This document shows positions 13,630-31,377 of a stretch of DNA of 33,790 nucleotides, in pieces (the stretch's first letter is position 1; each line of letters opens with the position of its first letter). Position numbers and translations under genes: made by a program. A model generated the notes under the pieces. The model worked only from the letters and a program-made list of their open reading frames with translations. It ran no database searches and was not told the DNA's origin. The stretch is taken from IMG/VR virus record IMGVR_UViG_3300007512_000122, positions 1 to 33,790 of that record; one strand, written 5' to 3'. This stretch comes from a virus.

Positions 13630-13770
13630 GTGAAAATCACCAAATCCCGACTTAAAGATATTATCGAAGAAGAGCTTAGTAATTATTTGTCCAACATATA
13701 CAAATGGTGCCCCTCGGGAAGCAAATGTTCTCCGGAGAAGAAAAAGACAAAGTGGTGGAAAGGAAGATGA
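13630..13770 (+). CDS. 46-residue tagged micro-protein (GTG start)
   Basis: The GTG at 13630 follows AAGGA (13617-13621) and opens a 46-residue frame beginning MKITKSRLKDIIEEE, the same tag found on six other genes here. It continues into a short basic tail with two Cys residues (WCPSGSKCSPEKKK) and ends in TGA at 13768-13770. That stop overlaps the ATG of the next gene (ATGA). The recurring tag, ribosome binding site and coupling together make it a convincing gene despite its size. The body is too short for an enzyme; it may be little more than a targeting helix plus a cationic Cys-containing peptide. Confidence 0.75.
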   Translation: MKITKSRLKDIIEEELSNYLSNIYKWCPSGSKCSPEKKKTKWWKGR

Positions 13771-14681
13771 AGATCACAAAAACGCAGCTTAAACAAATCA
13801 TCAAAGAAGAGCTAAGTTCGATAGAGGATCTTGAAGCCCGGCTTGCCGGCATGGATGCGCGCAGAGACGACGACACTCAGAAAGTCAAACACAGAGACGC
13901 TAGAGACGAGCTAAATGAAATAGCCCGAACCCTACAACAAATGTTTGAGTTGTCAAACCTTATGGTGCAGAAGAAGTCAGAACACTTTCAGAACACAACT
14001 GTTTATGGGTTACCCATCCGAGAACAAGGTGCCCTTAAGGAGTTGGCTGATATTACTAGAGAATACGCCAAGCATGTAAAAGGTGCCGAATCAGAGCCAG
14101 TGACTGAAGGTCGAGGATCTGGGCATTCTGAAGTCTTAAGGCATACAAACGATGCAGTCGAGCGTATAATTAAGAAGGTTGGCTCACTAGGAGATGAGCT
14201 TGTATCCGGCGCCACTCGCGGAGGACCGTACGAGAGGATGCCAGTTGACATGTATATAGATGGCTTCGACAACTACGACGAACCCCGAAAAGTGCTCAGA
14301 GAACAAGCATTAAAATTGCGATTCGCGATTGAATATGGTTTAGATCGCCCGGTACCACCCGGGATTAGAGATAGGCTTAAAAAAGAGATCAAATCGGGAT
14401 TCCTTAGTAATATGCGCGGACTTAAATCAACATATAGAGAACACATGCTGAAGATCGTTAAAGAGGAAGTCGAAGCCGCACTGGAGGAGAAAAAGATGCA
14501 AGAAGCCCCCTCAGAAGAAAAGGATGATTGGATCCAAGATGCAGAAAAAGATATTGAAAAGAGCGGCACAGAAGGTGTCTGCACCGGCGATAAGTTTGGC
14601 GGACCTACTTGCAAGCCGGGAACGAAGAGATATAATCTAGCCAAAACATTCCGCAAGATGGCAAAGGACAAAAAGAAATGA
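13767..14681 (+). CDS. Tagged protein, MKITKTQLKQIIKEE family
   Basis: The start is placed at ATG 13767, not the upstream in-frame ATG at 13704. The former gives the tag MKITKTQLKQIIKEE at the N-terminus, follows GGAAG and forms an ATGA overlap with the preceding micro-gene. The protein has 304 residues, is highly charged and predicted largely helical, with no recognised domain. Near the C-terminus is CTGDKFGGPTCKPGTKRYN followed by a Lys-rich tail, a Cys-pair motif that partly recurs in other proteins of this window. It ends in an ATGA overlap with another tagged gene. A candidate internal head protein by its tag; biochemical role unknown. Confidence 0.75.
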   Translation: MKITKTQLKQIIKEELSSIEDLEARLAGMDARRDDDTQKVKHRDARDELNEIARTLQQMFELSNLMVQKKSEHFQNTTVYGLPIREQGALKELADITREYAKHVKGAESEPVTEGRGSGHSEVLRHTNDAVERIIKKVGSLGDELVSGATRGGPYERMPVDMYIDGFDNYDEPRKVLREQALKLRFAIEYGLDRPVPPGIRDRLKKEIKSGFLSNMRGLKSTYREHMLKIVKEEVEAALEEKKMQEAPSEEKDDWIQDAEKDIEKSGTEGVCTGDKFGGPTCKPGTKRYNLAKTFRKMAKDKKK

Positions 14682-15016
14682 AGATTACAAAAGAACAATT
14701 GCGTAAGATTATCGCGGAAGAGGTCGCCAATGAAGGCGTCGTGAAAAAGCCTTTCGATGACTCCATGATCACTCACGATGATTATGAGCAGTCTGACGAG
14801 CCTTCTCGCGACGATACTGGCGAGCCTCCTCTTACACAACGATCACAACGCAAACTTAACCACAATCATATGCTGGCGAGAATTAACGACGCAAAGCTTT
14901 ACCTTCAACAACAAGGCGATCCAGTAGCGTCAGAGCTTTCTCAAGAGTTAGATCAGGTAATATACAGCATGGAACTGTTAAGTGATTATTTTATGGGCGA
15001 TATGCCCTCTGAGTAA
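14678..15016 (+). CDS. Tagged protein, MKITKEQLRKIIAEE family
   Basis: A 112-residue acidic protein whose ATG overlaps the previous stop (ATGA). The N-terminus MKITKEQLRKIIAEEVANEG is the shared helix and contains the I-x-E triplet (IAE). The rest is polar, with an Asp/Glu-rich middle and a helical C-terminal half (RINDAKLYLQQQGDPVASEL). No catalytic motif is visible. It is the last gene of a three-gene tagged run before a promoter, and no obvious terminator follows. Its function is not recognised. Confidence 0.7.
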   Translation: MKITKEQLRKIIAEEVANEGVVKKPFDDSMITHDDYEQSDEPSRDDTGEPPLTQRSQRKLNHNHMLARINDAKLYLQQQGDPVASELSQELDQVIYSMELLSDYFMGDMPSE

Positions 15017-15032
15017 TGGCACAAAAAAATAC

Positions 15033-15061
15033 TTGACAGCCTCTACTGAACAAGATATACT
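15033..15061 (+). promoter_or_regulatory. Near-consensus sigma70-type promoter for the Mre11-Rad50 fusion
   Basis: A consensus TTGACA (15033-15038) and TATACT (15056-15061) are separated by 17 bases. The expected transcript start is near 15068, about 30 bases before the TTG start codon at 15098. The -10 element lies in the middle of a long inverted repeat, suggesting repression. Confidence 0.8.
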
Positions 15062-15074
15062 TGTATAGTAGAGG
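15040..15074 (+). promoter_or_regulatory. 35-base inverted repeat over the -10 element (probable operator)
   Basis: Arms CCTCTACT-ga-ACAAG (15040-15054) and CTTGT-at-AGTAGAGG (15060-15074) match at 13 of 15 positions around ATATA. The repeat spans the spacer, the -10 box and the expected start site, which is a classic repressor-operator placement. Because transcription would begin inside it, a hairpin in the full transcript is less likely than a dimer-binding DNA site. Confidence 0.6.
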
Positions 15075-15097
15075 CACATTTGTGCTCGGAGGGAAGT

Positions 15098-18000
15098 TTG
15101 AAGTTTGCACACATCAGTGACACTCATATCAAAAATTTGAAGTATCATTACGAATATAGAATTGTATTCGAACAATTATACCAGACGCTGCGAGAGCAGG
15201 AAGTCGATTACATCGTTCATTGCGGAGATATCGCACACACAAAGACACAGATCTCACCAGAGTTTGTGGAAATGTGTTCTGATTTCTTCCGCAGTTTAGC
15301 GGAGATTGCACCCACATATATTATATTGGGCAACCACGATGGCAATCTAAAGAATAGTAGTCGCCAAGACGCATTGACGCCGATTGTAGATGCGTTAAAC
15401 TTGCCAGCTCTGCATCTGCTCAAAGAATCTGGCGAAACCCACATAGACGATAAGTTCTGTTTGAATGTGCTTTCAGTCTTTGATCGAGATAATTGGACAA
15501 AGCCAAGCGATACTGATAAAATCAACATCGCCCTGTATCACGGCTCAATCAGCAACTGTAAGACTGACATGAACTGGACAATGAGAAATGGCGAAGATAC
15601 TCTAACTATCTTTGAAGACTTTGATTTCGCCATGCTCGGCGATATTCACCGTCGTCAATATTTAGATGAAGTAGGTCGCGTTTGGTATGCCGGCTCAACT
15701 GTACAGCAGAATCATGGCGAAACAAATGATAAGGGGATTCTCATCTGGGATATCCAGTCAAAGGATGATTGGGAAATCGAGCCCATTGTGCTTAAGAATC
15801 CAAAGCCATTCTTTACAATTCCTTTAACGATGAAGGGGCGCATGCCACGCAAGATTGATGTGCCAACCGGCGCTCGTCTGCGCTTGGTGAGCAACAACAA
15901 TCTTCCGCTCAATGTGATGAAGCGCGCAATGGATATCGCCAAACACCGATTCAAACCGGAGAGCATCTCGTTTTTGAACAGAGCCACCGGTGAACGCGGA
16001 AATGTTGAAGATATTACAGACGGACTCAAGACCGAGAACTTGCGAGATCCAAAGATTCAGGAAGAACTTATCGATGAGTACCTTAAGGACTATCAGGTGC
16101 CCTCTGAGACGCTCGAAAAAGTTTATGAACTCAATCGGGCTTACAACAAAATTATTGAGGAGACAGAGGAAGTCTCGCGCAATGTAAACTGGAAACTTAA
16201 GACCTTTGAGTTTGACAATCTGTTTAATTATGGAACAGACAATTCAATTAATTTTGAAAATATGGGTGGTATCATCGGCATCTTTGGAAAGAACTTTTCC
16301 GGAAAGAGTTCTGTGATTGATGCTGCATTATATACTTTGTTTAATACGACGTCCAAGAACGAACGCAAAAACTTAAACGTCATTAATCAGAACAGAGATT
16401 CATGCGCAGGCAAGCTCACTATCGAGTCAAACAATAAGGTCTATACGGTTGAAAGGAAATCAGAGAAGTACGTTAAGAGGCTTAAGGGCGAGGAAACCCT
16501 AGAAGCCAAAACCGATTTGAATTTTGAAGTATATGATCGCATCACCGAAGAAACAACATCTCTGAACGGAACAACGCGAAATCAGACAGATGCAATTATC
16601 AGAAAGCATTTTGGTTCTATCGATGATTTCATGGTATCTTCGCTAGCCTCGCAGCATGGTGCGTTAGCATTTATTGATGAGGGCTCTACTCGACGTAAAG
16701 AGATCATTGCTAAGTTCTTGGACCTGGAGATTTTTGAAAAGAAGTTTAGGATGTCCAAGGAAGACTCGGTAGAAGCCAAAGTCTTGATTAAGAAGCACGA
16801 AGACCGAGACTATGGGGCAGACATCACCGCCGCCACGAAGGAGTTGAATAAGTATCAGAACAAATCAGAGAAGAACAAGAGCCTCTGTGAATCCTTGCGT
16901 ATTAAGCTTAATACATTGACGGATGTTGTGCGCTTATTGGAAGAACAAATCAAAGCGACTCCCTCGGAAGTGGTGGACATTACTAACTTGCGCAAAGAGC
17001 ACAAAAAGAAAGTTAATTCTATTGTTGCTTTGGGCGAAACAATCAAAGAACAATCGCAGTTCATATCTCTCAAGAGCGAGGAAATCGCGGCAACCGAGAA
17101 GCTACTCGGCGCGATAGATCACCAGAAGAACCTTGAGAATAAGTTGTCGATTGAGAAATTAGATGAAACGATTGCCTCGTTAAATCAAGAACTAGAGAGT
17201 ATCGTTAAGAAACAGAAGCTGCTAGAGGGAATCCCGTGCGGTGATTCGTTCCCAACGTGCAAGTTTATTAGAGATGCACACGTCTCAGTTGCCACAAGGG
17301 ATATTGCAGCTAACGAGCGCGATAAGTCCATAGAAGCCCGCAGCGCATTAAATCCCGAAGAAATCGAGTTGGAGATTGAAGAACACAACGCTTTACAAAT
17401 AAAGTCTTTAAATTTTGAAAAAGAGATTTCTGAGTTGAAGCTTAAGCGAGAGCGCAACAAGGCTACAAAATCTAAGATAGAATTATCTTTGAAAGATATT
17501 ACTAATCAAATTAAGGAATACGAAGAAAATAAAGAAGCAATTGAGAATCTTGAGAAACTTATAAAGGAAAAAGATAAGCACCAAAAAGACATGAACAGTA
17601 AGCAGAATGAGATAACGACTTGCGAACAAGAGACTTTAGATATCGTTAAACTCGTTGGTTCTTGCGAACAAAAGATTGAAAACTTGCGAGAGCAACAAAC
17701 TGAATACAAAGAACTACAGAACTCATATGCAGCCTACGATCTGTTTATGCAGTGCATGCACCCAAACGGAATTGCATACGATGTGATTAAAAAGAAGATT
17801 CCTGTTATCAATCAAGAGATAGCGAAGGTGTTGGCAAATATTGTAGATTTTGAAATTTTCTTTGAGAGTTCTGGTAATAAGTTTGACATCTTTATCAAGC
17901 ACCCTCTATACGACGAGCGCCCTATTGAAATGGCGTCTGGCGCAGAGAAAACCATGGCGGCGATGGCAATTCGTTTGGCTCTTCTGAGTGTCTCTTCACT

Positions 18001-18205
18001 GCCCAAAAGCGACTTATTCATCCTCGACGAGCCCGGCACAGCATTAGATGAAGAAAATATGGAAGGTTTTATTAGGATCTTAGAACTAATTAAAGTGTAT
18101 TTTAAGAACGTTTTGTTGATCTCGCACCTTGATTCGCTCAAAGACTGTGTTGACATGCAAATTGTAATTGAAAAGAAAAATGGATATGCAAGAGTAAACC
18201 AATAA
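15098..18205 (+). CDS. Single-chain Mre11-Rad50 (SbcD-SbcC, T4 gp47-gp46) recombination nuclease/ATPase
   Basis: A 1035-residue polypeptide. The start is placed at TTG 15098, which follows GGAGG (15088-15092) and gives the family-typical MKFAHISDTHI; an in-frame TTG at 15080 lacks a binding site. Residues 1-~340 are a calcineurin-like nuclease with all motifs: D8/H10, GD43-44, GNHD78-81, H148 and GDIH181-184. Residues ~365-1035 are a Rad50-type ATPase. They carry a P-loop GKNFSGKSS (~397-405), a long coiled coil, a hook-like Cys714-x6-Cys721 at its apex, an ABC signature SGAEKTMA (~947) and Walker B DLFILDEPGTALDEE (~972). The complex resects DNA ends for recombination-dependent replication. 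T4 encodes the two halves as separate genes, 47 and 46; here they are continuous in one frame. Confidence 0.92.
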   Translation: MKFAHISDTHIKNLKYHYEYRIVFEQLYQTLREQEVDYIVHCGDIAHTKTQISPEFVEMCSDFFRSLAEIAPTYIILGNHDGNLKNSSRQDALTPIVDALNLPALHLLKESGETHIDDKFCLNVLSVFDRDNWTKPSDTDKINIALYHGSISNCKTDMNWTMRNGEDTLTIFEDFDFAMLGDIHRRQYLDEVGRVWYAGSTVQQNHGETNDKGILIWDIQSKDDWEIEPIVLKNPKPFFTIPLTMKGRMPRKIDVPTGARLRLVSNNNLPLNVMKRAMDIAKHRFKPESISFLNRATGERGNVEDITDGLKTENLRDPKIQEELIDEYLKDYQVPSETLEKVYELNRAYNKIIEETEEVSRNVNWKLKTFEFDNLFNYGTDNSINFENMGGIIGIFGKNFSGKSSVIDAALYTLFNTTSKNERKNLNVINQNRDSCAGKLTIESNNKVYTVERKSEKYVKRLKGEETLEAKTDLNFEVYDRITEETTSLNGTTRNQTDAIIRKHFGSIDDFMVSSLASQHGALAFIDEGSTRRKEIIAKFLDLEIFEKKFRMSKEDSVEAKVLIKKHEDRDYGADITAATKELNKYQNKSEKNKSLCESLRIKLNTLTDVVRLLEEQIKATPSEVVDITNLRKEHKKKVNSIVALGETIKEQSQFISLKSEEIAATEKLLGAIDHQKNLENKLSIEKLDETIASLNQELESIVKKQKLLEGIPCGDSFPTCKFIRDAHVSVATRDIAANERDKSIEARSALNPEEIELEIEEHNALQIKSLNFEKEISELKLKRERNKATKSKIELSLKDITNQIKEYEENKEAIENLEKLIKEKDKHQKDMNSKQNEITTCEQETLDIVKLVGSCEQKIENLREQQTEYKELQNSYAAYDLFMQCMHPNGIAYDVIKKKIPVINQEIAKVLANIVDFEIFFESSGNKFDIFIKHPLYDERPIEMASGAEKTMAAMAIRLALLSVSSLPKSDLFILDEPGTALDEENMEGFIRILELIKVYFKNVLLISHLDSLKDCVDMQIVIEKKNGYARVNQ

Positions 18206-18217
18206 GGAGTCAACAGC

Positions 18218-18748
18218 ATGAAAATTACCAAATCGCAGCTTCGAAGCGTAATCAGAGAAGAAATAGAAAACACCGTCGATGAGGGTTTTGTGGACTCTAT
18301 CAAGGGCGCCCTCGGTCTTGGCGGCAAGAAAGCAGCCCCAGCAGCCGATCCAATGGCAAATGTCCCAGAAGATGAGCGCGAAGACTATGAAGAATTTCGT
18401 AGTGGAGGCGCCGCCGGTCAATTCAAGTGGGAAGATGCCCGAGGACAGAACTTCGACGATACGAGTTCATATGAGGCTTACCAGGACTTCTTAAAATGGA
18501 GAACCAAGCATGTAGCTGACTCCGAACAACATCGACAGGCTCAATGGGATATTGAGCAAGCCAGGAAGAAGCGCGGCTCTGGAAGATCGTCGTCATCGTC
18601 GTCGTCGTATCGACGTGATAAATCCCCTGCCCATCGCGCATCCAGCGCTGTTGGTTCATCTAACCTTGCTTACGGCGAATCCATAGAGAAGATTAAGGAC
18701 ATTATTAGAGAAGTGCTACAAGAGATTCAAGGAGATAAAAAACAGTGA
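18218..18748 (+). CDS. Tagged protein, MKITKSQLRSVIREE family, with Ser-rich linker
   Basis: A 176-residue protein with an ATG start behind AGGAG. The N-terminal tag MKITKSQLRSVIREEIENTV is followed by a Gly/Ala-rich segment, an acidic and aromatic middle, and a seven-Ser run with surrounding Arg residues. The C-terminus carries a second tag-like amphipathic helix (SIEKIKDIIREVLQEIQ). Copies at both ends would suit a protein that self-associates or is cut more than once. No enzyme motif is visible. It ends in a GTGA overlap with the ParB-like tagged gene, implying coupled translation. Possibly an internal head protein. Confidence 0.72.
   Translation: MKITKSQLRSVIREEIENTVDEGFVDSIKGALGLGGKKAAPAADPMANVPEDEREDYEEFRSGGAAGQFKWEDARGQNFDDTSSYEAYQDFLKWRTKHVADSEQHRQAQWDIEQARKKRGSGRSSSSSSSYRRDKSPAHRASSAVGSSNLAYGESIEKIKDIIREVLQEIQGDKKQ
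18587..18607 (+). repeat. Trinucleotide repeat encoding seven Ser residues
   Basis: Seven consecutive Ser codons, six TCG and one TCA, sit in the linker of the tagged protein at 18218. The run could vary in length by slippage but stays in frame. Confidence 0.8.
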
Positions 18749-19770
18749 AACTTTTAATGGAAAACTGGCGTAAATTTGTTAATGAACAAGAAGAAGCCGC
18801 ACAACAAGGATTTGCCCAAATAACTCCCGATACTAATATTGGAGCCGTCAAGGCTGATGAACTCTGGAGGCAGCTTGTGTCCGGACAGGAGAGTCCGCTC
18901 TATAATGCGATGAAAAATGCCACTGGCTGGGCAAGCGGCGTCTTGGGCACCCCAGAACAAGTTAAACAAAGGTTTGGGCAGATTGGACAAGAAGCCTTCA
19001 TAGCGAGAGTTCAACAAGTTCAAAAACTGATCTCTACAGCAAAAACAGCTAAATTTAATATGCCTGCTCTGGAGGGCGGAGACGCCGATGCAGTAGTAGA
19101 TGCACTAAGCGATCAAGATGGCGCCTTGGGAGTTGATCTAAGTTCGAAATTTGCGAACCAAATCGAAAGCTTTAAAGAGTGGTGGGAGGCACTACCCGAG
19201 CCGATTAAACAGATGTACGAAGCAGGGAAGATCCCATCTGTAGAACAAGTACAGCAAGCAACCCAACAGACCCCCCAACAAAACGTCAGTGAAGACAAGT
19301 TTCCACGATTTGGAAAAGGTCCAATGCCCGGCGCCCCCGCTGTTGGAGAAAAAGAACAAATCAATCTTAAAAATATTAAGGGCGCCGCATTGGCGTTCTT
19401 AACCAAAGGGATGCTCGACGGCGCGCCGGGTGACGCTGTAGCCGTTGAAAAAGACGCCGGCGCCACAAACTCAAAAATGATTCCAACGCAAAGTAATATT
19501 TTGGCAGCTAAGTCACTATTATTTGCATACAACAATCCAGCAAAACAACTCAAAGATATGGGCGGAGCCTTTGTCACTAGTGATGGAAAGATTCTCGACG
19601 GTCACCATCGTTGGTCAGGCGCCCTTATCGGTACCGGTGGTGCACTTCAGCATACCGGCGTTCATATTGTTAAGGCGCCAGCCGATGCAGTCATCCCTCT
19701 TTTGGTTACGGTAGGGAACGCACTTGGTCGCCAGCAAAAGGGTCCCAATCCCGAAGACGAAAACCAGTAA
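18745..19770 (+). CDS. Tagged protein with C-terminal ParB-like (DGHHRW) domain
   Basis: A 341-residue protein with a GTG start, AAGGAG at 18729-18734 and a GTGA overlap with the preceding gene. The N-terminus MKLLMENWRKFVNEQ belongs to the second tag type and resembles the T4 internal-protein leader. A helical middle and a Gln/Pro-rich linker (about residues 170-185) follow. The C-terminal ~140 residues contain GKILDGHHRWSGAL (about 281-294), the hallmark of the ParB/sulfiredoxin-like fold, which binds nucleotide and in some members cuts DNA. A prohead-targeted ParB-like protein could be injected with the DNA. The next gene is FtsZ-like, so a partition-like partnership is also conceivable. 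Both ideas are inference. Confidence 0.72.
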   Translation: MKLLMENWRKFVNEQEEAAQQGFAQITPDTNIGAVKADELWRQLVSGQESPLYNAMKNATGWASGVLGTPEQVKQRFGQIGQEAFIARVQQVQKLISTAKTAKFNMPALEGGDADAVVDALSDQDGALGVDLSSKFANQIESFKEWWEALPEPIKQMYEAGKIPSVEQVQQATQQTPQQNVSEDKFPRFGKGPMPGAPAVGEKEQINLKNIKGAALAFLTKGMLDGAPGDAVAVEKDAGATNSKMIPTQSNILAAKSLLFAYNNPAKQLKDMGGAFVTSDGKILDGHHRWSGALIGTGGALQHTGVHIVKAPADAVIPLLVTVGNALGRQQKGPNPEDENQ

Positions 19771-19785
19771 AATAAGGAATAAACA

Positions 19786-20934
19786 ATGTCTGATAACGAA
19801 AATAAAGATGACAAAAACGAATTTGATTTTCTGCCTCCCGCAGAGCCACCACCCTCCTTTAATCAGGAGAAAGACCACTATCACGAAGAAGTCGCAGCAG
19901 AGGATTTCGGCATGGTTGAGGACTTCGGTCTCCAGATGGAATATTCTGATGAAGATCTCCTCCCAGAAAACACTGCCCCTTCTTCGATTAATGTGGGCTT
20001 TGTTGGCGTTGGCGGCGGAGGCAACAAAATGGCGAACGCCTTCATTGAACTTGGATTCAACAAAACACTGATGGTAAACTCCACAGGGAAAGACATTCCG
20101 AAGAACGTCGAAGAAGATCACGTCGTTCTTATCCCCGATAGCGACGGCATCGGAAAGAACGTCGTTTACGGCAAAGAGATTCTTTCCCAAAATGGCGCCA
20201 TCGTTGAAGATGCACTTCGTATTAAGCTTGGAAAAGTCGATTGGCTTTTCGTTATGGCTGGTGGAGGCGGCGGAACCGGCAGTTCGGTAACCGCGCTGCA
20301 GCCAGTCTTCGAAAGATATATGCAATCAGTTCAGGCTTCTGGAAAAGTGGTCTATATTGTTTCTTGGCCAACCGCGCAAGAGGCACTGAACCCGACTATC
20401 GCTCGCAACGCGCTTACGCTCGTGAATGACGTTGCCCGCCATCCGCACATCGTTCTCGACAACGAACGTGCCACACGATTACTCCGCGGCAGAATCGGCA
20501 TGCTTGGCATGTATCCTGTCGCTAACACAACATTTGCTAAGTCACTTGCTCAAGTTTTAAAACTCTCCACCGAGGATTCACCGATCCAATCTTTCGATTC
20601 TAAAGATTTGGAAACTTGCTTGAGCAATAATGGCAGAGCCTTTATGGGCTCAACAATGATAAAAGATCCAAATACAGCAAAGCTTGGATCGGTGATCCTT
20701 CATAACTGTATGAATCGTTCTGCGTGTCCGCCCCCCAAGGGGAAGGCAGGCGCCGGTTCGTTAGTGTTGGTGGTCTCGGAAGAGATGGTGGCTGACCCAA
20801 AGGTCAGTAAAAACATTGAGTCTGCAATCGCTTATGTCGGCGGTCGGTGCGAGACACTTTTCTCTGGCGTTTACGTGCGCAAGAATGTGCCCGGATTGAT
20901 TGCGATACTAAGTATGAATGGATTAGCAACATGA
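19786..20934 (+). CDS. FtsZ/tubulin-like GTPase
   Basis: A 382-residue protein with an ATG start behind AAGGA. The first ~66 residues are an acidic, Pro-containing extension without a recognised domain. The rest follows FtsZ order. The T1 loop is VGFVGVGGGGNK (70-81), the T4 tubulin signature AGGGGGTGSS (158-167), and IVLDNERATRLL (222-233) stands where FtsZ has IVIPN. The T7 loop region IQSFDSKDLETCLSNNGRAF (267-286) aligns with FtsZ NVDFADV...SEMGMAMMG and keeps both acidic residues (Asp271, Asp274). FtsZ and tubulins form GTP-dependent filaments in which the T7 loop of one subunit activates the next. In jumbo phages PhuZ filaments position DNA and capsids. Whether this protein builds filaments or interferes with host division is unknown. 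Confidence 0.87.
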   Translation: MSDNENKDDKNEFDFLPPAEPPPSFNQEKDHYHEEVAAEDFGMVEDFGLQMEYSDEDLLPENTAPSSINVGFVGVGGGGNKMANAFIELGFNKTLMVNSTGKDIPKNVEEDHVVLIPDSDGIGKNVVYGKEILSQNGAIVEDALRIKLGKVDWLFVMAGGGGGTGSSVTALQPVFERYMQSVQASGKVVYIVSWPTAQEALNPTIARNALTLVNDVARHPHIVLDNERATRLLRGRIGMLGMYPVANTTFAKSLAQVLKLSTEDSPIQSFDSKDLETCLSNNGRAFMGSTMIKDPNTAKLGSVILHNCMNRSACPPPKGKAGAGSLVLVVSEEMVADPKVSKNIESAIAYVGGRCETLFSGVYVRKNVPGLIAILSMNGLAT

Positions 20935-21395
20935 ACAAACTATTTGAAAATTGGCGAAAGTACACAAACGAAGCAGCATACGAACCCGGTCGTGCTGTTG
21001 CCGATATTGATACTGGCGAAGATTACATGAGCCCCGAAGAAATTAGGGACGAAGAGGTACAAGACTTGGCTGACAAGTTTAATGTCGAAGCCTTCGTTGA
21101 GATTGCTAGCGATGGAAAGCCTTCTATTATAGTAAAGCACCAAGACGGCAAATTGTCAATGTATAACGACACAGAAGAGATGTACAAAGAGTTAGCAAGC
21201 CGACAAGAAATGAATGAAGCAGCTGAACCACATTCAGCCTCTCACGTCGTTAAAAAGATGATGAAAACAGGACTAAGTGCTAAGGAAGCGCTAAAGAGTT
21301 TAACTCATGATCTTTCTGATGAAGAAGCTGAGCGTTGGCTTGAGCGCCACAAGGATGAAATGGATAGTGCTGAACAAGATTTAGCAAGCCGATAA
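20931..21395 (+). CDS. Tagged protein, ENWRKYTNE type
   Basis: The start is placed at ATG 20931, which overlaps the FtsZ-like stop (ATGA); a longer in-frame extension to 20847 would lie wholly inside that gene. The 154-residue protein begins MNKLFENWRKYTNEAAYE, matching the leader of the ParB-like gene and the T4 internal-protein leader. It is acidic and helical. The middle (VEAFVEIASDGKPSIIVKHQ) looks like a small beta-hairpin domain, and the C-terminus has a helix pair ending in ERWLERHKDEMD. No catalytic motif is visible. Coupling to the FtsZ-like gene suggests co-expression. Confidence 0.75.
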   Translation: MNKLFENWRKYTNEAAYEPGRAVADIDTGEDYMSPEEIRDEEVQDLADKFNVEAFVEIASDGKPSIIVKHQDGKLSMYNDTEEMYKELASRQEMNEAAEPHSASHVVKKMMKTGLSAKEALKSLTHDLSDEEAERWLERHKDEMDSAEQDLASR

Positions 21396-21417
21396 TAAAT
21401 ATAAAAGGAATAATATA

Positions 21418-21741
21418 ATGGCATTTAGAAAAAACAAGAAGTTCATTGATCCTCGTTACTTTATGGACGAGAAGACTGATATTATTAAAGAAGAGATTGA
21501 GGAGGCGCGCCTTCCTGCATGGGAACGCCCGGTCCACACACCGCCCGAAGAAGAAAGATTTACTGGCGGCTCCATTGATATTGAACCACTCTCCGATGAA
21601 GAACAAGAAGCTTCTTACGATGCCTATTACGAATTGCATAGTTTCTTGCTGGATTCGGACCTCCCCGGCAACAAACCATCAGATAAGCTACGTCACGCCC
21701 TTCGTTGGATTGCAAAATTTGAAAAGCAAGGTATGGGTTAA
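21418..21741 (+). CDS. Tagged protein, IDPRYFMDEK type
   Basis: A 107-residue protein with an ATG start behind AAGGA. Residues 10-26 (IDPRYFMDEKTDIIKEE) repeat the N-terminal motif of the gene at 13102. The remainder is acidic, with a C-terminal helical segment (DKLRHALRWIAKFEKQ). It ends four bases before a gene carrying the MKITKSQLKEII tag. Two unrelated bodies with the same leader argue that the leader has its own function. No other domain is recognised. Confidence 0.7.
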   Translation: MAFRKNKKFIDPRYFMDEKTDIIKEEIEEARLPAWERPVHTPPEEERFTGGSIDIEPLSDEEQEASYDAYYELHSFLLDSDLPGNKPSDKLRHALRWIAKFEKQGMG

Positions 21742-21745
21742 CAAC

Positions 21746-22603
21746 ATGAAAATCACAAAATCACAACTCAAAGAAATTATACGAGAGAATATCGACTCGC
21801 TTCCGATTGAGAATTTAATCGGCGGAATCAGCAGTCTCGTCGACGGCATGGATCCGGAGTTGGTGGGTGTTGTTTTCACCACTGTCTTCAAGGAGATGGA
21901 GGGAGGCAGTCCGCCACCCGAAACAAGTGAAGAGCCGGAAGCGACCCAACAAATTGGCTTTGATAGGGAACCTGAAGAAGTATCCAATAGAGCACCAGAG
22001 CGCATCGGCTTCGAAGAGAGCTTGATAAAAGTAATCAAAGAAGAAATGAGTACCGATTCCGCCCTTTTAAGCGCGATCAATAAATTAGCAGACAAGATTG
22101 ATAACTTAGATGTTAGTGTTGATTACTTAGCCGCTTCTGTTACCGGCGAAGATCCTCTCTCTCTTGGGTATGGACAGGCAGCGTTTGGCAGAGCCGCCCG
22201 CAAGAAGAAGATTCAACCGCCGGCGGAATTAGCCGAGATCATCGAACAAGAGATCGCAGAGGCGCTAGGTACGGGCAGAATGGCTCCAGTAGCTCGCACT
22301 CTCTCTCGCGCAGGGATCGCCCAGCGCTCAGAACCAACAAGAACAGAGTTGATGAAATTAATAGCTGCCTTAGACACCGGAGACCCAGAGGAATTACAAC
22401 AACTAGCCGATATGGTGGCACAACTCATGGACGCAGCTAGCGAAAATATTGAACAAGATTACGGCTTAGAAGAGGTGTCTTCCGAGAAGCAACGCCGCTG
22501 GGCTTGCGCACAAAAAGACAAGCCCGCCGATGAAAGAGCAGACAGCTTATCCGCAGCAGAGGCAGAAGAGATGTGTACATCCAAAGTGGAAGAAGACGCA
22601 TGA
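21746..22603 (+). CDS. Tagged protein, MKITKSQLKEIIREN family, with internal tag-like helices
   Basis: The start is placed at ATG 21746, giving the shared tag at the N-terminus; the same frame stays open upstream to 21446, but that part overlaps the previous gene. The protein has 285 residues. Beyond the first helix it contains two similar amphipathic helices, ESLIKVIKEEM (about 92-102) and LAEIIEQEIAEAL (about 161-173), which could be further cleavage or assembly sites. The C-terminus is Cys-containing (QRRWACAQKDKPADERADSL). No enzyme motif is visible. It is the last tagged gene before the lysis-like genes. Confidence 0.75.
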   Translation: MKITKSQLKEIIRENIDSLPIENLIGGISSLVDGMDPELVGVVFTTVFKEMEGGSPPPETSEEPEATQQIGFDREPEEVSNRAPERIGFEESLIKVIKEEMSTDSALLSAINKLADKIDNLDVSVDYLAASVTGEDPLSLGYGQAAFGRAARKKKIQPPAELAEIIEQEIAEALGTGRMAPVARTLSRAGIAQRSEPTRTELMKLIAALDTGDPEELQQLADMVAQLMDAASENIEQDYGLEEVSSEKQRRWACAQKDKPADERADSLSAAEAEEMCTSKVEEDA

Positions 22604-22646
22604 CCGGAAGAGGAAGGCTTAGTTTAAGCTAATAATTGGAGACAAG

Positions 22647-22844
22647 ATGATGGAATATGTACAAGGCAAACTAGACAGATTAGTCGAGAAAATGATTTCT
22701 CGGAAGTTTCTTGTATGGCTAACCGCAACAGGACTCCTCGCATTTTCAGACTTACAGTCGGGCGACTGGGTAATTATTTCAGCAATTTACATTGGGGGTC
22801 AAACTGTCATCGATGGTATCGCTAAACTTAAGGGTGTCGCGTGA
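22647..22844 (+). CDS. Holin-like small membrane protein
   Basis: A 65-residue protein with two possible adjacent ATGs (22647 and 22650) behind GGAG. It has a short amphipathic N-terminus and two hydrophobic segments, FLVWLTATGLLAFSDL (about 22-37) and WVIISAIYIGGQTVIDGIA (about 41-59). Size, membrane pattern and position directly before a spanin-like gene fit a holin, the protein that permeabilises the inner membrane to time lysis. Holins have little sequence conservation, so this is a context-based call. Its stop overlaps the next start (GTGA). Confidence 0.55.
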   Translation: MMEYVQGKLDRLVEKMISRKFLVWLTATGLLAFSDLQSGDWVIISAIYIGGQTVIDGIAKLKGVA

Positions 22845-23227
22845 ATTGGTCGGCAGTAATTAAATTTGGTTTAAAGTACTGGCGAGAACTGCTGGTCGTT
22901 GGCTCCCTCCTTGCAGTTGTAATTAAGACACAGCTTGATTATCGTGCGCTTAATAAAGCGTATGAGATTTCGCAACAAAGCCTCCAAGAACAAGTAGAGG
23001 GTTTACAAAAGATTCACGAGGAAGAACTTAAGAAGCGAGACGCGGCATTGAGGAGCTACCGTACAACTCTTGAAGAAATCGAAAGAGGCTATTTAGAATC
23101 TCAAGAAGAAGTCGAAAGATTAAAAAAACAGAAAAGAGATCGTTTAGAGAAAAGCTATTCATCGAACCCGGAGGATTTAGCCAATGAGATTGTTAATACT
23201 TATGGCTTTGAGCGCACTGCTGAGTAA
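22841..23227 (+). CDS. Rz-like inner-membrane spanin
   Basis: A 128-residue protein with a GTG start overlapping the previous stop. It has one N-terminal membrane segment (LLVVGSLLAVVIKTQL, about 17-32), then a long charged coiled coil (about 35-110) and a short C-terminal tail. This is the architecture of i-spanins (Rz), which are anchored in the inner membrane and reach through the periplasm to fuse it with the outer membrane at lysis. The next gene starts inside its 3' end in another frame, as Rz1 genes often do. The sequence itself is not diagnostic, but topology plus context is good support. Confidence 0.65.
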   Translation: MNWSAVIKFGLKYWRELLVVGSLLAVVIKTQLDYRALNKAYEISQQSLQEQVEGLQKIHEEELKKRDAALRSYRTTLEEIERGYLESQEEVERLKKQKRDRLEKSYSSNPEDLANEIVNTYGFERTAE

Positions 23228-23615
23228 TCCGGCACTCGGCGCCGACAACGGAAGGTTTACCTTTTTGGGGAAAAATCAATGCGCGCCATACGAGGGTGTC
23301 CTGTTCGACCCAAAAGCAACCGCTCACATCCTTGCGGATCGGTTTGCCTTAAATAACGATTGCGAGATAAGGATGAAATATCAACTGGATATACAAGCAG
23401 CAGACTATGATCTACAATTACAAAACTTACAGATTCGCCACGAAGCCCTTTTGCAAGAATATGTTTTACGAATTGATTCGCTAGAACGCGAGAGTGGTGC
23501 GCTAGCAAATGCTCTTAAAAAACAAAGTAAAAAAAATCCTGCACTTTGGGTGACAATTGGGGTAGCATCTGGAATAGCACTAAGCTACGGTGCATATAAG
23601 GTGTTTAATGAGTGA
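23184..23615 (+). CDS. Signal-peptide protein with C-terminal membrane anchor, possible spanin partner
   Basis: A 143-residue protein with an ATG start behind GGAGG (23170-23174), overlapping the Rz-like gene by 44 bases in a different frame. Residues 1-20 form a signal peptide (MRLLILMALSALLSNPALGA) with a typical type-I cleavage site and no lipobox Cys. The middle has two Cys residues and a coiled-coil-like helix. Residues ~120-138 (ALWVTIGVASGIALSYGAY) form a C-terminal membrane segment. Position suggests an o-spanin equivalent, but classical Rz1 is a short lipoprotein. This one would instead be held by a C-terminal helix, so its role in lysis is inferred. Confidence 0.6.
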   Translation: MRLLILMALSALLSNPALGADNGRFTFLGKNQCAPYEGVLFDPKATAHILADRFALNNDCEIRMKYQLDIQAADYDLQLQNLQIRHEALLQEYVLRIDSLERESGALANALKKQSKKNPALWVTIGVASGIALSYGAYKVFNE

Positions 23616-23994
23616 GAAAGATTTAAATGAGGTAGCTGCCATTGAGCGCGCAATCGCTGCGAAATATGGTGAAGAAGCCATTAAAAATCCTCGGTCCGAT
23701 TGGGACGAGACCAAAGAAAAAGAATATCTTCAGCAAATGAAAGAACTCTATCGCCACGCTTCTAAGAATAAAGAGTGGGAAGAAAAAGTCGACGTTAATG
23801 GGATAAAGGTTACAAAAAAACTACTTAATAGAGAATCTTTAAAAACTTGTCCTGTCTGCGGAAATTTTCCAAAGAGTGCAATGGATGATGTCTGTCTTGT
23901 AAAATTTGATTGTTGCAATAATTGTTACATTGAATATGTAGAAGATAGAGAAGAAAGATGGAAAAAAGGCTGGAGACCAAATGAGAATCAATAA
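23608..23994 (+). CDS. Small zinc-finger-like protein
   Basis: The start is placed at ATG 23608, overlapping the preceding stop; an in-frame ATG at 23590 is possible but lies deeper in the neighbour. The 128-residue protein has a charged helical N-terminal half. The C-terminal half carries CPVCGNF and then FDCCNNCYIEY, together a likely four-Cys zinc site. It ends with a basic/aromatic segment (REERWKKGWRPN). Such a fold could bind nucleic acid or protein. It overlaps the next tagged gene by 14 bases. It could be an adaptor or regulator; I do not recognise the family. Confidence 0.65.
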   Translation: MSEKDLNEVAAIERAIAAKYGEEAIKNPRSDWDETKEKEYLQQMKELYRHASKNKEWEEKVDVNGIKVTKKLLNRESLKTCPVCGNFPKSAMDDVCLVKFDCCNNCYIEYVEDREERWKKGWRPNENQ

Positions 23995-24286
23995 ATCACA
24001 ACTTAAACAAATTATTAGAGAAGCAATTGCTGAGTCCGACATCGGAACTGCCGTCTCGGACCTCGGCGGCTCTGCAAAGACGACCGTCAAGAACCAAGCA
24101 GTGCAGAAGTTTATCGAGCAGGTGGGTGTGCGCCTATCGAAGGTTAGCCGCAGCGCCCAAGTAGAATTTTTAAAAGGCTTGATGCAGACGCTTGACATCG
24201 ATCCATCGCTACTAACACAAGTGAAGACCGCTGTTCAGAAAGACCAAAGAGCTGCCGCCGCAGCACCACAAGGAGAACCCCAATAA
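23981..24286 (+). CDS. Tagged protein, MRINKSQLKQIIREA family
   Basis: A 101-residue protein whose ATG lies inside the end of the previous gene. The N-terminal MRINKSQLKQIIREAIAESD is a clear variant of the shared tag, with the triplet IRE followed by Ala, very like the T4 leader cleavage context. The body is helical (VQKFIEQVGVRLSKVSRSAQ), ending in an Ala/Pro-rich tail. No catalytic motif is visible. It joins the next gene by a TAATG overlap. Confidence 0.72.
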   Translation: MRINKSQLKQIIREAIAESDIGTAVSDLGGSAKTTVKNQAVQKFIEQVGVRLSKVSRSAQVEFLKGLMQTLDIDPSLLTQVKTAVQKDQRAAAAAPQGEPQ

Positions 24287-24837
24287 TGGCAACAGTTTAC
24301 GAAATAGTTCAAGGCTTATCACAAGCCGCAGCAAACGCATATGACGGTGCGCTTGGAGAAGATCAGTCGCCAGTAACCGTAGGCGCCCTGCGCAGAGAAG
24401 AGGGCAACGCCCTTATCGATCAGAGGGTCATGGACGGCTTCAACGTGAAGTTTTACGGAGACATGATGTGTCTCACATATCAGTCCGATATTCAACTCAG
24501 AGAGGTTTATGCCGGCGGATTTGAAGAAGAGATTGAGCAAAGACTTGTTGATATTTCTGGATGGCTCAAGAAAGAGTATAAGAGAATCACTGGCGAATCA
24601 GTCAAGCTGACCAAAGAGGGCGAAGCTGATGTGCGCGTTGAGAACTCTTCCCGTGTTCGTTCATGGGTTGTGGCTAAGCTCCACTTTCGCGTTGGTGGTC
24701 TATCCGAGCAAATGAACGTCGACAACAGCGGCTCCACCAATCCCGTAGAGGCTAGCTGGAAAAAGTTTTTGGATCTTGGTGGCTGGAATGGCGAAGGCGG
24801 CAAGCGCCCCGACAACGATAAAAGAAAGAAAGAATAG
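24286..24837 (+). CDS. Conserved-looking hypothetical protein upstream of the terminase
   Basis: A 183-residue protein with an ATG sharing its A with the preceding TAA, behind AGGAG. It is mixed alpha/beta with a hydrophobic segment (VKFYGDMMCLTYQSDIQL) and a later RSWVVAKLHFRVGG strand; the C-terminus is Gly-rich and basic. There is no tag and no membrane helix. Position just before the packaging genes would suit a small terminase, neck or head-completion protein, but nothing diagnostic is present. It resembles, from memory, unannotated proteins of other large aquatic phages. Confidence 0.65.
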   Translation: MATVYEIVQGLSQAAANAYDGALGEDQSPVTVGALRREEGNALIDQRVMDGFNVKFYGDMMCLTYQSDIQLREVYAGGFEEEIEQRLVDISGWLKKEYKRITGESVKLTKEGEADVRVENSSRVRSWVVAKLHFRVGGLSEQMNVDNSGSTNPVEASWKKFLDLGGWNGEGGKRPDNDKRKKE

Positions 24838-24840
24838 ACA

Positions 24841-25098
24841 ATGAAATTCTCCAAATTATACCTTAAGCAGATCATCAAAGAAGAGATCTCAAGTGTTTTG
24901 CGCGAGGGTCATTATCATGATATGGGCGGTGAAGACGAGACATATGATGTCCTCGATCCCCACGGAATCGAAGATATGTCCGATGCTGAGCTTGTCGACA
25001 TGATGCATGTAGATGGAATGGAAGAAATGATTGTTCTGGACGGAGAAGGGGATCTTGCAAATCGCGAAGAAGTTATAGCAGCATTGAAAGATGTATGA
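24841..25098 (+). CDS. Tagged protein, MKFSKLYLKQIIKEE family
   Basis: An 85-residue acidic protein beginning MKFSKLYLKQIIKEEISSVL, a divergent but clear member of the tag family. The body contains Met- and Asp-rich helices (MSDAELVDMMHVDGMEEM) and no recognisable domain. Its stop overlaps the terminase start (ATGA at 25095-25098), so the two are translationally coupled. Being tied to the packaging motor fits a head-related function; a small terminase is unlikely at this size and acidity. Confidence 0.7.
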   Translation: MKFSKLYLKQIIKEEISSVLREGHYHDMGGEDETYDVLDPHGIEDMSDAELVDMMHVDGMEEMIVLDGEGDLANREEVIAALKDV

Positions 25099-26678
25099 CG
25101 TTCCAATTAGACAAAAAACAACAAGTTAAAGAAATACTTAAATGCGGGAAGGAACCCGCTTATTTTTTAAAGACTTACGCAAGAATTTCCCATCCCATGT
25201 ATGGGCTTATTTTATTTGATACTTATGATTTCCAAGACGACCTTCTTAAAGATTTTAATGATTATCGCTTTAATGTTATTTTAAAGGCGCGCCAGTTAGG
25301 GATTTCAACAATCACTGCTGGCTATATTGTTTGGTTGATGTTGTTTCACCGTGACAAATCAATTCTTGTTATGGCGACCAAATTTGCAACAGCGGGCAAC
25401 TTAGTAAAGAAGGTCAAGGGCGTTATGCGCAACTTGCCAGATTGGCTTAAGATCGCCACAATTGACGTGGATAACCGGACTTCCTTTGAGCTTTCTAATG
25501 GGTCATCTATCAAAGCAGCGTCTACCTCTGGTGATGCCGGTCGTTCTGAGGCACTGTCTTTGCTGGTTCTTGATGAGGCTGCACACATTGAAGGACTTGA
25601 AGAACTGTGGACCGGTCTGTATCCTACACTATCAACTGGTGGGCGATGCATAGCACTTTCAACGCCCAACGGGGTCGGTAACTGGTTCCATAAAACATGT
25701 ATGGATGCTGAAGGCGGCAGCAATAACTTTAACCTTACAACACTCCAGTGGGACGTTCACCCCGAGCGTGATGAAGCTTGGTATAAGAAAGAAACCAAGA
25801 ACATGTCAAAACGCCAGATTGCACAAGAGCTTGAGTGCAATTTCAATACTTCTGGCGAGACTGTCATAGACCCTGACTGTATGAAGTGGCTATTAGAAAA
25901 TGTTAAAGAGCCAAAGCACAGAACCGGCTTTGATCGCAATTTCTGGATTTGGGAAGAATTCGATCCCACATGTAACTATCTTGCGGTGGCAGATGTTTCG
26001 CGAGGCGATGGCGCTGACTATTCAACATTACACATGATTAAATTAGAGACGCTGGAAATCGTGGGCGAGTATCAAGGGAAGCCAACGCCCGATATGTATG
26101 CAAACTTCTTGAATCAAGTAGGGAGAGAATTTGGAAATGCGATGCTTGTAGTAGAGAACAATAACATCGGTTACACGGTTCTCGATAAACTCGTTGAACA
26201 CGGTTATCCAAATTTGTACTACTCTATTAAGTCTACACATGAGTATATAGAGCAACATCAAGCAGAAGTTAGAAACTCTGCCGTTGCCGGGTTCACAACC
26301 TCAATGAAGACGCGCCCGCTCATCGTTGCGAAATTAGAGGAGTTTATCAGAAACAAACTAATTAAGATATATTCATCTCGCACAATTAATGAGATGAAAA
26401 CTTTTATTTGGAAGAACGGTAAACCACAGGCAATGAAAGGATATCATGATGATCTCATCATGGCGCTAGCGATTGCTTGCTGGGTGAGGGACACAGCATT
26501 GCAATCAAACGCACGAGACCTAAACTATCAAAAAGCTTTTGTGAATGCCATTGTTACTTCGAAGACTTCTATGAACACTCAAATTAACGGACAACAAGGC
26601 TACAAAAAAGATAATATTTTTGATAAAATGGGTGAAGCAAAAGAATTATACGATCAGTATAAATGGATTATTAAGTGA
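25095..26678 (+). CDS. terL: Terminase large subunit (gp17-like packaging ATPase/nuclease)
   Basis: A 527-residue protein close to the size of T4 gp17 (610 residues). The ATPase domain has KARQLGIST (about residues 64-72), a deviant Walker A lacking the usual GKT lysine but with an upstream Lys/Arg as in many terminases. It also has Walker B LLVLDEAAHIE (about 154-164) and a coupling motif LSTPNG. The C-terminal RNase H-like nuclease has acidic residues in VADVSRGDGADYS, VVENNNIGY and YHDDLIMALA. The enzyme docks on the portal, pumps DNA into the prohead and cuts the concatemer. It is followed directly by the portal gene. Confidence 0.95.
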   Translation: MTFQLDKKQQVKEILKCGKEPAYFLKTYARISHPMYGLILFDTYDFQDDLLKDFNDYRFNVILKARQLGISTITAGYIVWLMLFHRDKSILVMATKFATAGNLVKKVKGVMRNLPDWLKIATIDVDNRTSFELSNGSSIKAASTSGDAGRSEALSLLVLDEAAHIEGLEELWTGLYPTLSTGGRCIALSTPNGVGNWFHKTCMDAEGGSNNFNLTTLQWDVHPERDEAWYKKETKNMSKRQIAQELECNFNTSGETVIDPDCMKWLLENVKEPKHRTGFDRNFWIWEEFDPTCNYLAVADVSRGDGADYSTLHMIKLETLEIVGEYQGKPTPDMYANFLNQVGREFGNAMLVVENNNIGYTVLDKLVEHGYPNLYYSIKSTHEYIEQHQAEVRNSAVAGFTTSMKTRPLIVAKLEEFIRNKLIKIYSSRTINEMKTFIWKNGKPQAMKGYHDDLIMALAIACWVRDTALQSNARDLNYQKAFVNAIVTSKTSMNTQINGQQGYKKDNIFDKMGEAKELYDQYKWIIK

Positions 26679-31332: not shown

Positions 31333-31375
31333 ATGGATGCTGCAGCCCGTTAGGCGTTGCTGCAAAGGATCCTAA
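31307..31375 (+). CDS. Possible 22-residue peptide between DUF1360-like gene and protease
   Basis: An ATG at 31307 with GGAG at 31297-31300 opens a 22-codon frame ending at TAA 31373-31375, two bases before the protease GTG. The product would be small, Trp- and Cys-containing and basic at the end (QPVRRCCKGS). Spacing of binding site, start, stop and the next start is what a real coupled gene would have, but at this length it could be accidental. Confidence 0.35.
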   Translation: MNTNTWTNKWMLQPVRRCCKGS

Positions 31376-31377
31376 CT

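What the first reader, a model, noticed from the sequence alone, without database searches (positions are those of the whole stretch)
13630..25098. Seven unrelated proteins share an MKITKSQLKQIIREE N-terminal helix
Genes starting at 13630, 13767, 14678, 18218, 21746, 23981 and 24841 begin with near-identical 15-residue amphipathic helices (M-K/R-I/F-T/N/S-K-x-x-L-K/R-x-I/V-I-x-E), then diverge completely in length and composition. Several sit at ATGA overlaps that fix the start. A shared leader on unrelated bodies acts like a sorting signal. Most contain an I-x-E triplet, like the T4 prohead-protease site. I know of no described function for this leader.
Basis: partly seen in the sequence, partly recalled or inferred. 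Interest (0 to 1): 0.88.

Follow-up and report, generated by a model that had tools for sequence, protein, structure and literature searches.

The report
Phage capsid-packaging address tags
Seven unrelated proteins of an uncultured T4-type phage begin with the same short tag, which most likely loads them into the phage head and is then cut off so that they can be delivered into the host with the DNA; similar tags occur in many environmental phages and point to candidate host-takeover proteins.

Summary
All seven genes start with the leader, all seven have I-x-E at residues 12-14, and a profile built without the window scores these starts 20-49 bits against -5 for the next. The window is a T4-type phage fragment with terminase, portal and gp21 prohead protease. 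In 16 records I found 138 carriers of this leader A and 55 of a second leader B (MKLLMENWRKFLNEE), three of them in the window. Leader A is most conserved at E14, I12 and L8; aligned by the Glu these are residues 10, 8 and 4 of the T4 capsid-targeting sequence, linked by mutants to processing and targeting. Capsid protein and gp21 of these phages carry similar LLRE-like sites. One body bears leader A in one phage and B in others; relatives of the window's 18745 C-terminal domain bear T4-type leaders. Leader-B bodies include SAM lyase, ADP-ribosyltransferase, kinase and GNAT matches. Best explanation: propeptides that load proteins into the head and are cut off by gp21. A new, expanded variant of a known kind. 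Packaging and cleavage are inferred, not shown.

The parts
13630..13671 (+). Leader A of the 46-aa gene 13630-13770 (GTG start), VKITKSRLKDIIEE; putative cut after E14
   Evidence: 31.3 bits
13767..13808 (+). Leader A of gene 13767-14681 (304 aa), MKITKTQLKQIIKE; putative cut after E14; ATGA overlap with 13630-13770
   Evidence: 49.0 bits
14678..14719 (+). Leader A of gene 14678-15016 (112 aa), MKITKEQLRKIIAE; ATGA overlap
   Evidence: 41.6 bits
18218..18259 (+). Leader A of gene 18218-18748 (176 aa), MKITKSQLRSVIRE
   Evidence: 37.5 bits
21746..21787 (+). Leader A of gene 21746-22603 (285 aa), MKITKSQLKEIIRE
   Evidence: 39.2 bits
23981..24022 (+). Leader A of gene 23981-24286 (101 aa), MRINKSQLKQIIRE
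   Evidence: 29.1 bits
24841..24882 (+). Leader A of gene 24841-25098 (85 aa), MKFSKLYLKQIIKE
   Evidence: 20.0 bits
18745..18786 (+). Leader B of gene 18745-19770 (341 aa, GTG start), VKLLMENWRKFVNE; the body ends in a ParB/sulfiredoxin-like domain
   Evidence: 43.1 bits; model and fold search
20931..20972 (+). Leader B of gene 20931-21395 (154 aa), MNKLFENWRKYTNE; ATGA overlap with the FtsZ-like gene
   Evidence: 31.7 bits
30073..30117 (+). Leader B-like N-terminus of gene 30073-30993 (or start 30064), MHLIMNGWRGYLLQE; glutamate one residue later than in the others
   Evidence: 25.3 bits
31976..32044 (+). Looser B-like N-terminus (...SDAWKGFLAE) of the large gene directly after gp21; the gene runs off the window end
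   Evidence: similarity judged by eye
13102..13614 (+). Gene with a third shared N-terminus (RRIDPRYFMDEK...IKEE), shared with 21418
21418..21741 (+). Gene with the third shared N-terminus (KKFIDPRYFMDEKTDIIKEE)
31357..31983 (+). gp21-type prohead protease (start uncertain: 31357 or 31378); from 31378 it begins VGQKLLREYYE, with an LLRE site
   Evidence: phrog_207 E 2.8e-57
25095..26678 (+). Large terminase
   Evidence: phrog_2 E 7.6e-55
26687..28714 (+). gp20-type portal protein
   Evidence: phrog_213 E 9.4e-72

Best explanation
The leader is a capsid-targeting propeptide of a T4-type phage. During head assembly it binds the prohead core and brings otherwise unrelated proteins inside. The gp21 prohead protease then cuts after the glutamate of the [I/L/V]-x-E at residue 14 and frees the body inside the head. 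The freed bodies stay as internal proteins and are probably delivered into the host with the DNA, as T4 IPI-III and Alt are. Leader A (MKITKSQLKQIIKEE) and leader B (MKLLMENWRKFLNEE) are alternative addresses that do the same job. Shown here by computation: the shared leaders, their register and conservation, the presence of gp21, similar motifs at the capsid-protein cleavage column and at the gp21 N-terminus of the same phages, leader swapping on one body, and T4-type leaders on relatives of one cargo domain. Inferred: core binding, cleavage, packaging and injection.
For: (1) Start-specific signal: over 16 records 137 of 67,474 start positions score at least 24 bits for A against 6 of 1,243,268 non-start positions; for B 52 against 4. 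(2) Modular: 138 A carriers in 106 body families, 55 B carriers in 39. (3) In leave-one-position-out scoring the three most conserved positions of A are E14 (3.80 bits; E in 136 of 141), I12 (3.48; 132 of 142) and L8 (3.25; 135 of 142), with K2 and T4 (3.23 each) just behind. B is strongest at W8 (5.78), then K2, R9, F/Y11; E14 is E in 43 of 56 and the x before it is the least conserved of positions 2-14. Aligned by the Glu, residues 8, 11, 12 and 14 are residues 4, 7, 8 and 10 of the T4 IPIII leader, which mutants link to targeting (4, 7) and processing (8, 10) (passage of PMC9026906). (4) The column aligned with residue 65 of T4 gp23, the end of the 65-residue piece that gp21 removes (passage of PMC9958956), is E in 13 of 13 capsid proteins; the 11 environmental ones read LLRE (8), LLKE (2) or VLRE (1), like the IIKE/IIRE of leader A. 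gp21 itself begins with LLRE or close (LIRE, VLRE, LLQE, VLQE) in 12 of 13 cassettes. (5) gp21 (phrog_207) is in 31 of 39 leader-bearing records of at least 50 kb against 1 of 12 neutral-pattern records of that size, or 2 of 13 if the leader-bearing record G002, which the neutral pattern also hit, is kept: p 7e-5. (6) Leader swap: one body with leader A in L079 and leader B in L070 and L167. (7) Of 51 relatives of gene 18745 distinct at 90%, 6 start with a T4-type MK...[FYW][ILVC]xE, apart from B carriers, against 12 of 2,473 background genes at the called start: p 8e-7. (8) Leader-B bodies match SAM lyase (3 of 53), and one each ART-PolyVal/DUF3990, protein kinase, GNAT, NUDIX, guanylate kinase, amidase. 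Gene 18745 has a ParB/Srx-like domain, a superfamily reported in injected polyvalent proteins (passages of PMC5512222). (9) Leaders are more alike within than between genomes (A 0.625 vs 0.563; B 0.474 vs 0.406; none of 1,000 permutations reached it). (10) In the GTDB genome contigs the exact leader-A pattern occurs in only 9 stretches of 5 MAGs.
Against: No virion proteomics exists for this phage that I know of, so packaging and cleavage are unproven. Leader A is not similar in sequence to the T4 leader; the link is register, motif and exchange. L-x-E is not rare in these propeptides: three further columns of the capsid alignment also have L/I-x-E in 12 or 13 of 13, so motif agreement alone is weak. 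Of the 39 leader-bearing records 8 lack a gp21 match. Three of these lack portal and terminase matches and one is cut at the portal; G018 has both but only one leader; G059, G063 and G067 were not checked further. The gp21 control is confounded, because large T4-type records are likelier to have both. The T4-type leaders sit on proteins that share only the C-terminal ParB/Srx-like part with 18745 (match from residue 140 or 218), and most relatives were classed 'other' by the strict rules (50 of 64). Carriers are not enriched for T4-like late-promoter motifs (A 3 of 116, B 1 of 37, others 102 of 2,342). Leader-A bodies are almost all without Pfam match. Identical leader residues within a genome use different codons in 44% of cases against 58% expected, so some copies are recent.
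Confidence: 0.8

Rival explanations
1. Leader A is a core-assembly helix: its carriers are themselves prohead core or scaffold components (like T4 gp67/gp68) that are cut up and discarded, and only leader B marks injected cargo.
For: A-carrier bodies are short (whole proteins median 114 aa), mostly acidic (74% with net negative charge) and nearly all without Pfam match. A conserved protein one or two genes after gp21 begins with a similar helix, MKKSELKxxIKxxVKExxxE, clearly in 10 of 13 cassettes and doubtfully in one more (G003); one cassette (G001) ends before it. It is the best hhalign match to leader A of six head-region families (P 0.0017).
Against: 26 A carriers in 24 body families in one phage (G003) is far more than a core should need. 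A body carrying A in one phage carries B in others. The hhalign probability is only 15.7%.
Confidence: 0.13
2. The leader docks the proteins to another place in the infected cell (membrane, replication factory, or the phage's own FtsZ-like filament) and is not cleaved.
For: A short N-terminal helix on unrelated proteins is also how other docking tags look (general knowledge). The window encodes a tubulin/FtsZ-family protein between carriers (19786-20934).
Against: The near-strict I-x-E in a fixed register, similar sites in the capsid protein and gp21, and T4-type leaders on relatives of one cargo domain.
Confidence: 0.05
3. The leaders are by-products of recombination: a gene-start cassette (ribosome-binding site plus first codons) copied in front of new genes, with no function of the peptide.
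For: Within-genome leaders are more alike, and codon identity is above what independent spelling would give.
Against: 44% of identical residues are spelled with different codons. Conservation is position-specific, strong at E14, I12 and L8 and falling after residue 15.
Confidence: 0.02

Closest known systems
T4 capsid-targeting sequence (CTS) of internal proteins IPI, IPII, IPIII (and the propeptide of Alt)
   Same: Short N-terminal peptide shared by unrelated bodies of one T4-type phage, ending in I/L-x-E, with gp21 encoded by the same phage; conserved positions coincide when aligned by the Glu; T4-type versions sit on relatives of the ParB/Srx-like domain of window gene 18745.
   Different: Leaders A and B differ in sequence from MKTYQEFIAE and have 14 residues up to the Glu against 10 in IPIII; many more carriers per genome (26 A in G003; 13 A plus 8 B in G002); bodies are different; packaging not shown.
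P1 DarB N-terminal capsid-targeting signal
   Same: An N-terminal signal of more than 9 and fewer than 30 residues sends a large injected protein and a reporter into the head (passages of PMC9024508).
   Different: Another phage group; sequence relatedness not tested here.
Polyvalent proteins injected by phages (ART, ParB/Srx and GNAT domains)
   Same: Leader-B bodies carry some of the same domains: ART-PolyVal, GNAT, ParB/Srx-like (passages of PMC5512222 and PMC7824862).
   Different: Those are multidomain proteins; the B carriers here are mostly shorter (median 188 aa) with a cleavable-looking tag.

Membership tests
T4-type capsid-targeting sequence | Short N-terminal peptide shared by otherwise unrelated proteins of one phage | tested here: met
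   Seven A and three B carriers in the window; over 16 records 138 A carriers in 106 body families and 55 B in 39
T4-type capsid-targeting sequence | Ends in the gp21 site L/I-x-E | tested here: met
   7 of 7 in the window; E14 in 136 of 141 and I12 in 132 of 142 A leaders; E14 in 43 of 56 B leaders
T4-type capsid-targeting sequence | Phage encodes a gp21-type prohead protease and T4-type head | tested here: met
   gp21, portal and terminase in the window (the capsid gene lies beyond its end); gp21 in 31 of 39 leader-bearing records of at least 50 kb; gp23 in 22 of 30
T4-type capsid-targeting sequence | Sequence similarity to the T4 IP leader (MKTYQEFIAE) | tested here: inconclusive
   Leader A shares only the aligned positions; strict leader B carriers L390 and L418 also fit the T4-type motif used. 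Relatives of one cargo domain carry T4-type leaders in 6 of 51 cases, and A and B swap on one body
T4-type capsid-targeting sequence | Protein is incorporated into the prohead core and found in virions | not testable with these tools
   Needs virion proteomics
T4-type capsid-targeting sequence | Leader is cut off by gp21 during maturation | not testable with these tools
   Only motif agreement with capsid-protein and gp21 sites is shown
T4-type capsid-targeting sequence | Leader is sufficient to send a foreign protein into the head | not testable with these tools
   Reported for T4 IPIII and P1 DarB by others (passages)

The most novel reading that the evidence does not exclude
Environmental T4-type phages use a modular packaging code. 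Several interchangeable address tags (A, B, the DPRYFMDEK type, FDLKKFLVEN, T4-type), each read by a matching partner in the prohead core, load dozens of different effectors per virion. Leader A may derive from, or pair with, the conserved helix of the protein encoded just after gp21. If so, a search for these tags would list the injected arsenal of most uncultured T4-type phages.
Probability: 0.35. Interest if true: 0.82.

Novelty: new variant of a known kind. Interest (0 to 1): 0.67.

Why it matters
T4 internal proteins are known to disarm host restriction, and in T-even phages many were found by their shared leader (passages of PMC12373910). Two further tag classes with a fixed register and a predicted cut site would turn part of the unannotated genes of environmental T4-type phages into a list of candidate injected proteins: matches to SAM lyase, ADP-ribosyltransferase and kinase families, a ParB-like protein, and about a hundred families of small proteins nearly all without a Pfam match. 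The packaging claim is directly testable by virion proteomics.

Tried and rejected
Tried without result: tblastn of a 26-residue leader peptide against INPHARED (no match at E 10) and of the 18745 protein (no match at E 0.001). N-termini of the cultured relative Mel-JY01 (40 genes of its first 49 kb) showed me no clear leader A or B by eye. RM378 and Pelagibacter phage HTVC008M were fetched but their N-termini were not examined. Late-promoter enrichment was negative. PDB sequence and fold searches for 18745 gave nothing significant; only the library of predicted viral structures gave ParB/sulfiredoxin matches (E 3e-5). phrog_3014, a second protease family, did not recover a protease in the five gp21-negative records. 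A search for a paper on the isolate immuto listed nothing on topic. Rejected: signal peptide or membrane anchor (leaders are strongly charged and have no hydrophobic core; judged from the sequences); chance; general cellular motif.

Limits of the counts. The 16 records were chosen because they carry leader A, so the counts say nothing about how common it is among phages. In the neutral scan I looked only at the 80 listed stretches and took 23 of the 24 listed records of at least 30 kb; the one left out, L319, is the leader-bearing record G002, which has gp21 (with it 3 of 24; p 2e-7 against 25 of 30). For one search I took 30 of the 39 leader-bearing records of at least 50 kb; the other nine were added (6 of 9 positive). 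A size-limited control entered as 1 of 11 was a miscount (1 of 12, or 2 of 13 with G002). The 18745 relatives are the best 80 of 200 loci, and one search peptide was the leader-B start itself, so leader-B counts among them are biased. My first T4-type count (10 of 64 against 18 of 2,473) allowed more start positions than the background and held a near-duplicate pair and one likely internal start; the recount with equal rules is 8 of 51, of which two are leader-B carriers, so I use 6 of 51. Rows left out: 80 of the 93 start hits went into (7 of the duplicate record G001, 3 crossing piece ends, 1 nested start and 2 weak ones left out); 53 of 55 B carriers went into (2 cross piece ends); G001 was left out because it repeats the window. 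The 106 A families come from single linkage without low-complexity filter, which chains 18 acidic bodies into one.


Full report
What is there. The window is an IMG/VR virus record of 33,790 bases. It carries a large terminase (25095), a gp20-type portal (26687) and a gp21-type prohead protease (31357), so it belongs to a T4-type phage. A profile built from 141 distinct leaders of other records places exactly these seven above every other start in the window, with a gap of 25 bits to the next. No pair of their bodies matches directly better than E 0.043.

How widespread. One of these contigs, NHDW01000006 (305,838 bases), also holds a gp21 match; in a second MAG the gp21 match is on a different contig than the leaders, but its leader contig PBIO01000025 has the same length (101,404) as an IMG/VR viral contig. 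I read 16 records in full (11 including G001, which repeats the window, 5, plus the window, minus G001). In these, 138 proteins carry leader A and 55 carry leader B. The signal is specific to gene starts: 137 of 67,474 starts against 6 of 1,243,268 other positions for A, and 52 against 4 for B, at 24 bits.

The second leader. A comparison of N-termini within each of ten records, with an internal-segment control, brought out leader B, MKLLMENWRKFLNEE, on other genes of the same phages (its output was cut in the middle). It has the same spacing as A: a large hydrophobic residue at 8, basic residues at 9-10, hydrophobic residues at 11-12, any residue at 13, Glu at 14. The window has three B carriers (18745, 20931, 30073), a looser one in the gene after gp21 (31976), and two genes with a third shared start (13102, 21418).

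Why a capsid-targeting propeptide. When each position is scored with that position left out, leader A is most constrained at E14 (136 of 141), I12 (132 of 142) and L8 (135 of 142), with K2 and T4 close behind. Leader B is most constrained at W8, then K2, R9 and F/Y11; E14 is E in 43 of 56. In T4, IPIII residues 4 and 7 matter for targeting and 8 and 10 for processing, and gp21 cuts after L/I-x-E (passages of PMC9026906). Aligned by the Glu these are positions 8, 11, 12 and 14 of the leaders. [quoted passage not shown] In the 11 environmental phages the site reads LLRE (8), LLKE (2) or VLRE (1), close to the IIKE/IIRE of leader A. Three other L/I-x-E columns in the same region are nearly as conserved, so this agreement is supportive, not decisive. 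The gp21 proteins begin with the same kind of site, for example MGKKLLREYYE, in 12 of 13 cassettes (starts by my own caller), and T4 gp21 is reported to remove its own first nine residues.

Exchange of leaders. One body of about 65 residues carries leader A in L079 and leader B in L070 and G014 (L167). The three proteins are mostly unalike up to E14 and closely alike soon after it. Relatives of window gene 18745 (80 best of 200 loci) show several kinds of start. In a count with equal rules for relatives and background, 6 of 51 relatives distinct at 90% begin with a T4-type start such as MKSFNEYITEA or MKNIPTFSEFINED, not counting two leader-B carriers that also fit the motif, against 12 of 2,473 background genes at the called start (p 8e-7). 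Others have B behind a short prefix, or A-like helices by eye. The T4-type ones share only the C-terminal, ParB-like part of 18745. This is the most direct bridge to the known T4 signal.

What the cargo is. Of the 80 A carriers scanned and 57, very few match Pfam, and none a replication or phage structural family. Of 53 leader-B bodies, three match SAM lyase (at least one of them below the family's cut-off), and one each ART-PolyVal and DUF3990 (one protein), protein kinase, GNAT, NUDIX, guanylate kinase and amidase. A separate SAM-lyase search found six places in five of 30 records. Two have strict leader B (G010, G020) and one a B-like start (G023: EKWKSFLNES). One keeps IIIKES before the body but lacks leader B (L375 in G028). 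Two on the other strand were not read (L370, L374). The ART-PolyVal search found one place, the B carrier in G014. The AlphaFold model of 18745 shows residues 2-21 as one helix at lower confidence (pLDDT 63-66) in front of a confident body, whose C-terminal part resembles phage ParB/sulfiredoxin proteins. A ParB domain of that superfamily occurs in P1 DdrB, which is put into the head in processed form, and in other proteins held to be injected (passages of PMC5512222). T4 Ip1-3 share only their leader and inhibit different GmrSD restriction enzymes (passages of PMC12373910).

Controls and weak points. gp21 is in 31 of 39 leader-bearing records of at least 50 kb and in 1 of 12 records of that size chosen by a neutral pattern, or 2 of 13 with G002, which that pattern also hit. 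Of the eight negatives, G014, G025 and G026 lack portal and terminase matches and G021 is cut at the portal; G018 has portal and terminase and one leader; three (G059, G063, G067) were not looked into. The comparison is confounded by phage type and size. Leaders are more alike within a phage than between phages, as expected if each phage's tags match its own core. Late-promoter motifs are not enriched, and amphipathicity is modest. A protein encoded just after gp21 starts with a similar helix, but the profile match is weak.

What is known and what is new. Capsid-targeting sequences are known from T4 and P1. I found no paper describing leader A, leader B or their spread in environmental phages in five searches; these cover only the open PMC library, and apart from the papers whose passages I cite I saw only search listings. 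I therefore call this a new variant of a known kind. The steps shown are sequence facts. Core binding, cleavage, packaging and injection are inferred.

Noticed in passing
window 19786-20934: Tubulin/FtsZ-family protein (Pfam PF00091, E 1.4e-8) encoded between leader carriers.
   Followed up: partly
window 22647-23615: Three small membrane or secreted-looking genes that read like a lysis cassette (holin, spanin-like), set among the carriers; judged from sequence only.
   Followed up: no
window 5833-6861 and 6933-7934: Two adjacent proteins with similar N-termini (IILDAVLTxxGRKRM); single genes with this start occur in other records.
   Followed up: no
L130:10992-11381, L139:9732-10124 and eight other gp21 cassettes: Conserved 124-143 aa protein (cut off at 45 aa in G024) one or two genes after gp21 begins with a helix similar to leader A (MKKSELKxxIKPLVKECIxEVLxEEGxLS).
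   Followed up: partly
L124 (Flavobacterium phage immuto): A cultured phage with two leader types of its own: MKKSQLRxIIKEA-like (7295, 7881, 18189, 28356) and FDLKKFLVENKLTxNS-like (8807, 22632, 23633).
   Followed up: partly
L366:18966-19130 (T4 gene 61.1): T4 gene 61.1 starts MKTFKEFIKED, close to the IPII/IPIII leader MKTYQEFIAEA; it may be a further internal protein.
   Followed up: no
L393, L396, L398, L402, L409: Relatives of 18745 in other phages have an extra N-terminal motif TLxE[IVL]YG[FY] or close before an A-like helix.
   Followed up: no
L378, L382, L384 (NHDW01000006.1) and L379, L381 (PBIO01000025.1): Contigs with many leaders filed in bacterial MAGs of GTDB look like phage contigs binned into the MAGs: one holds a gp21 match, the other has the length of an IMG/VR viral contig.
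   Followed up: partly
G003 and G005: Two gp23-type capsid proteins encoded in tandem.
   Followed up: no
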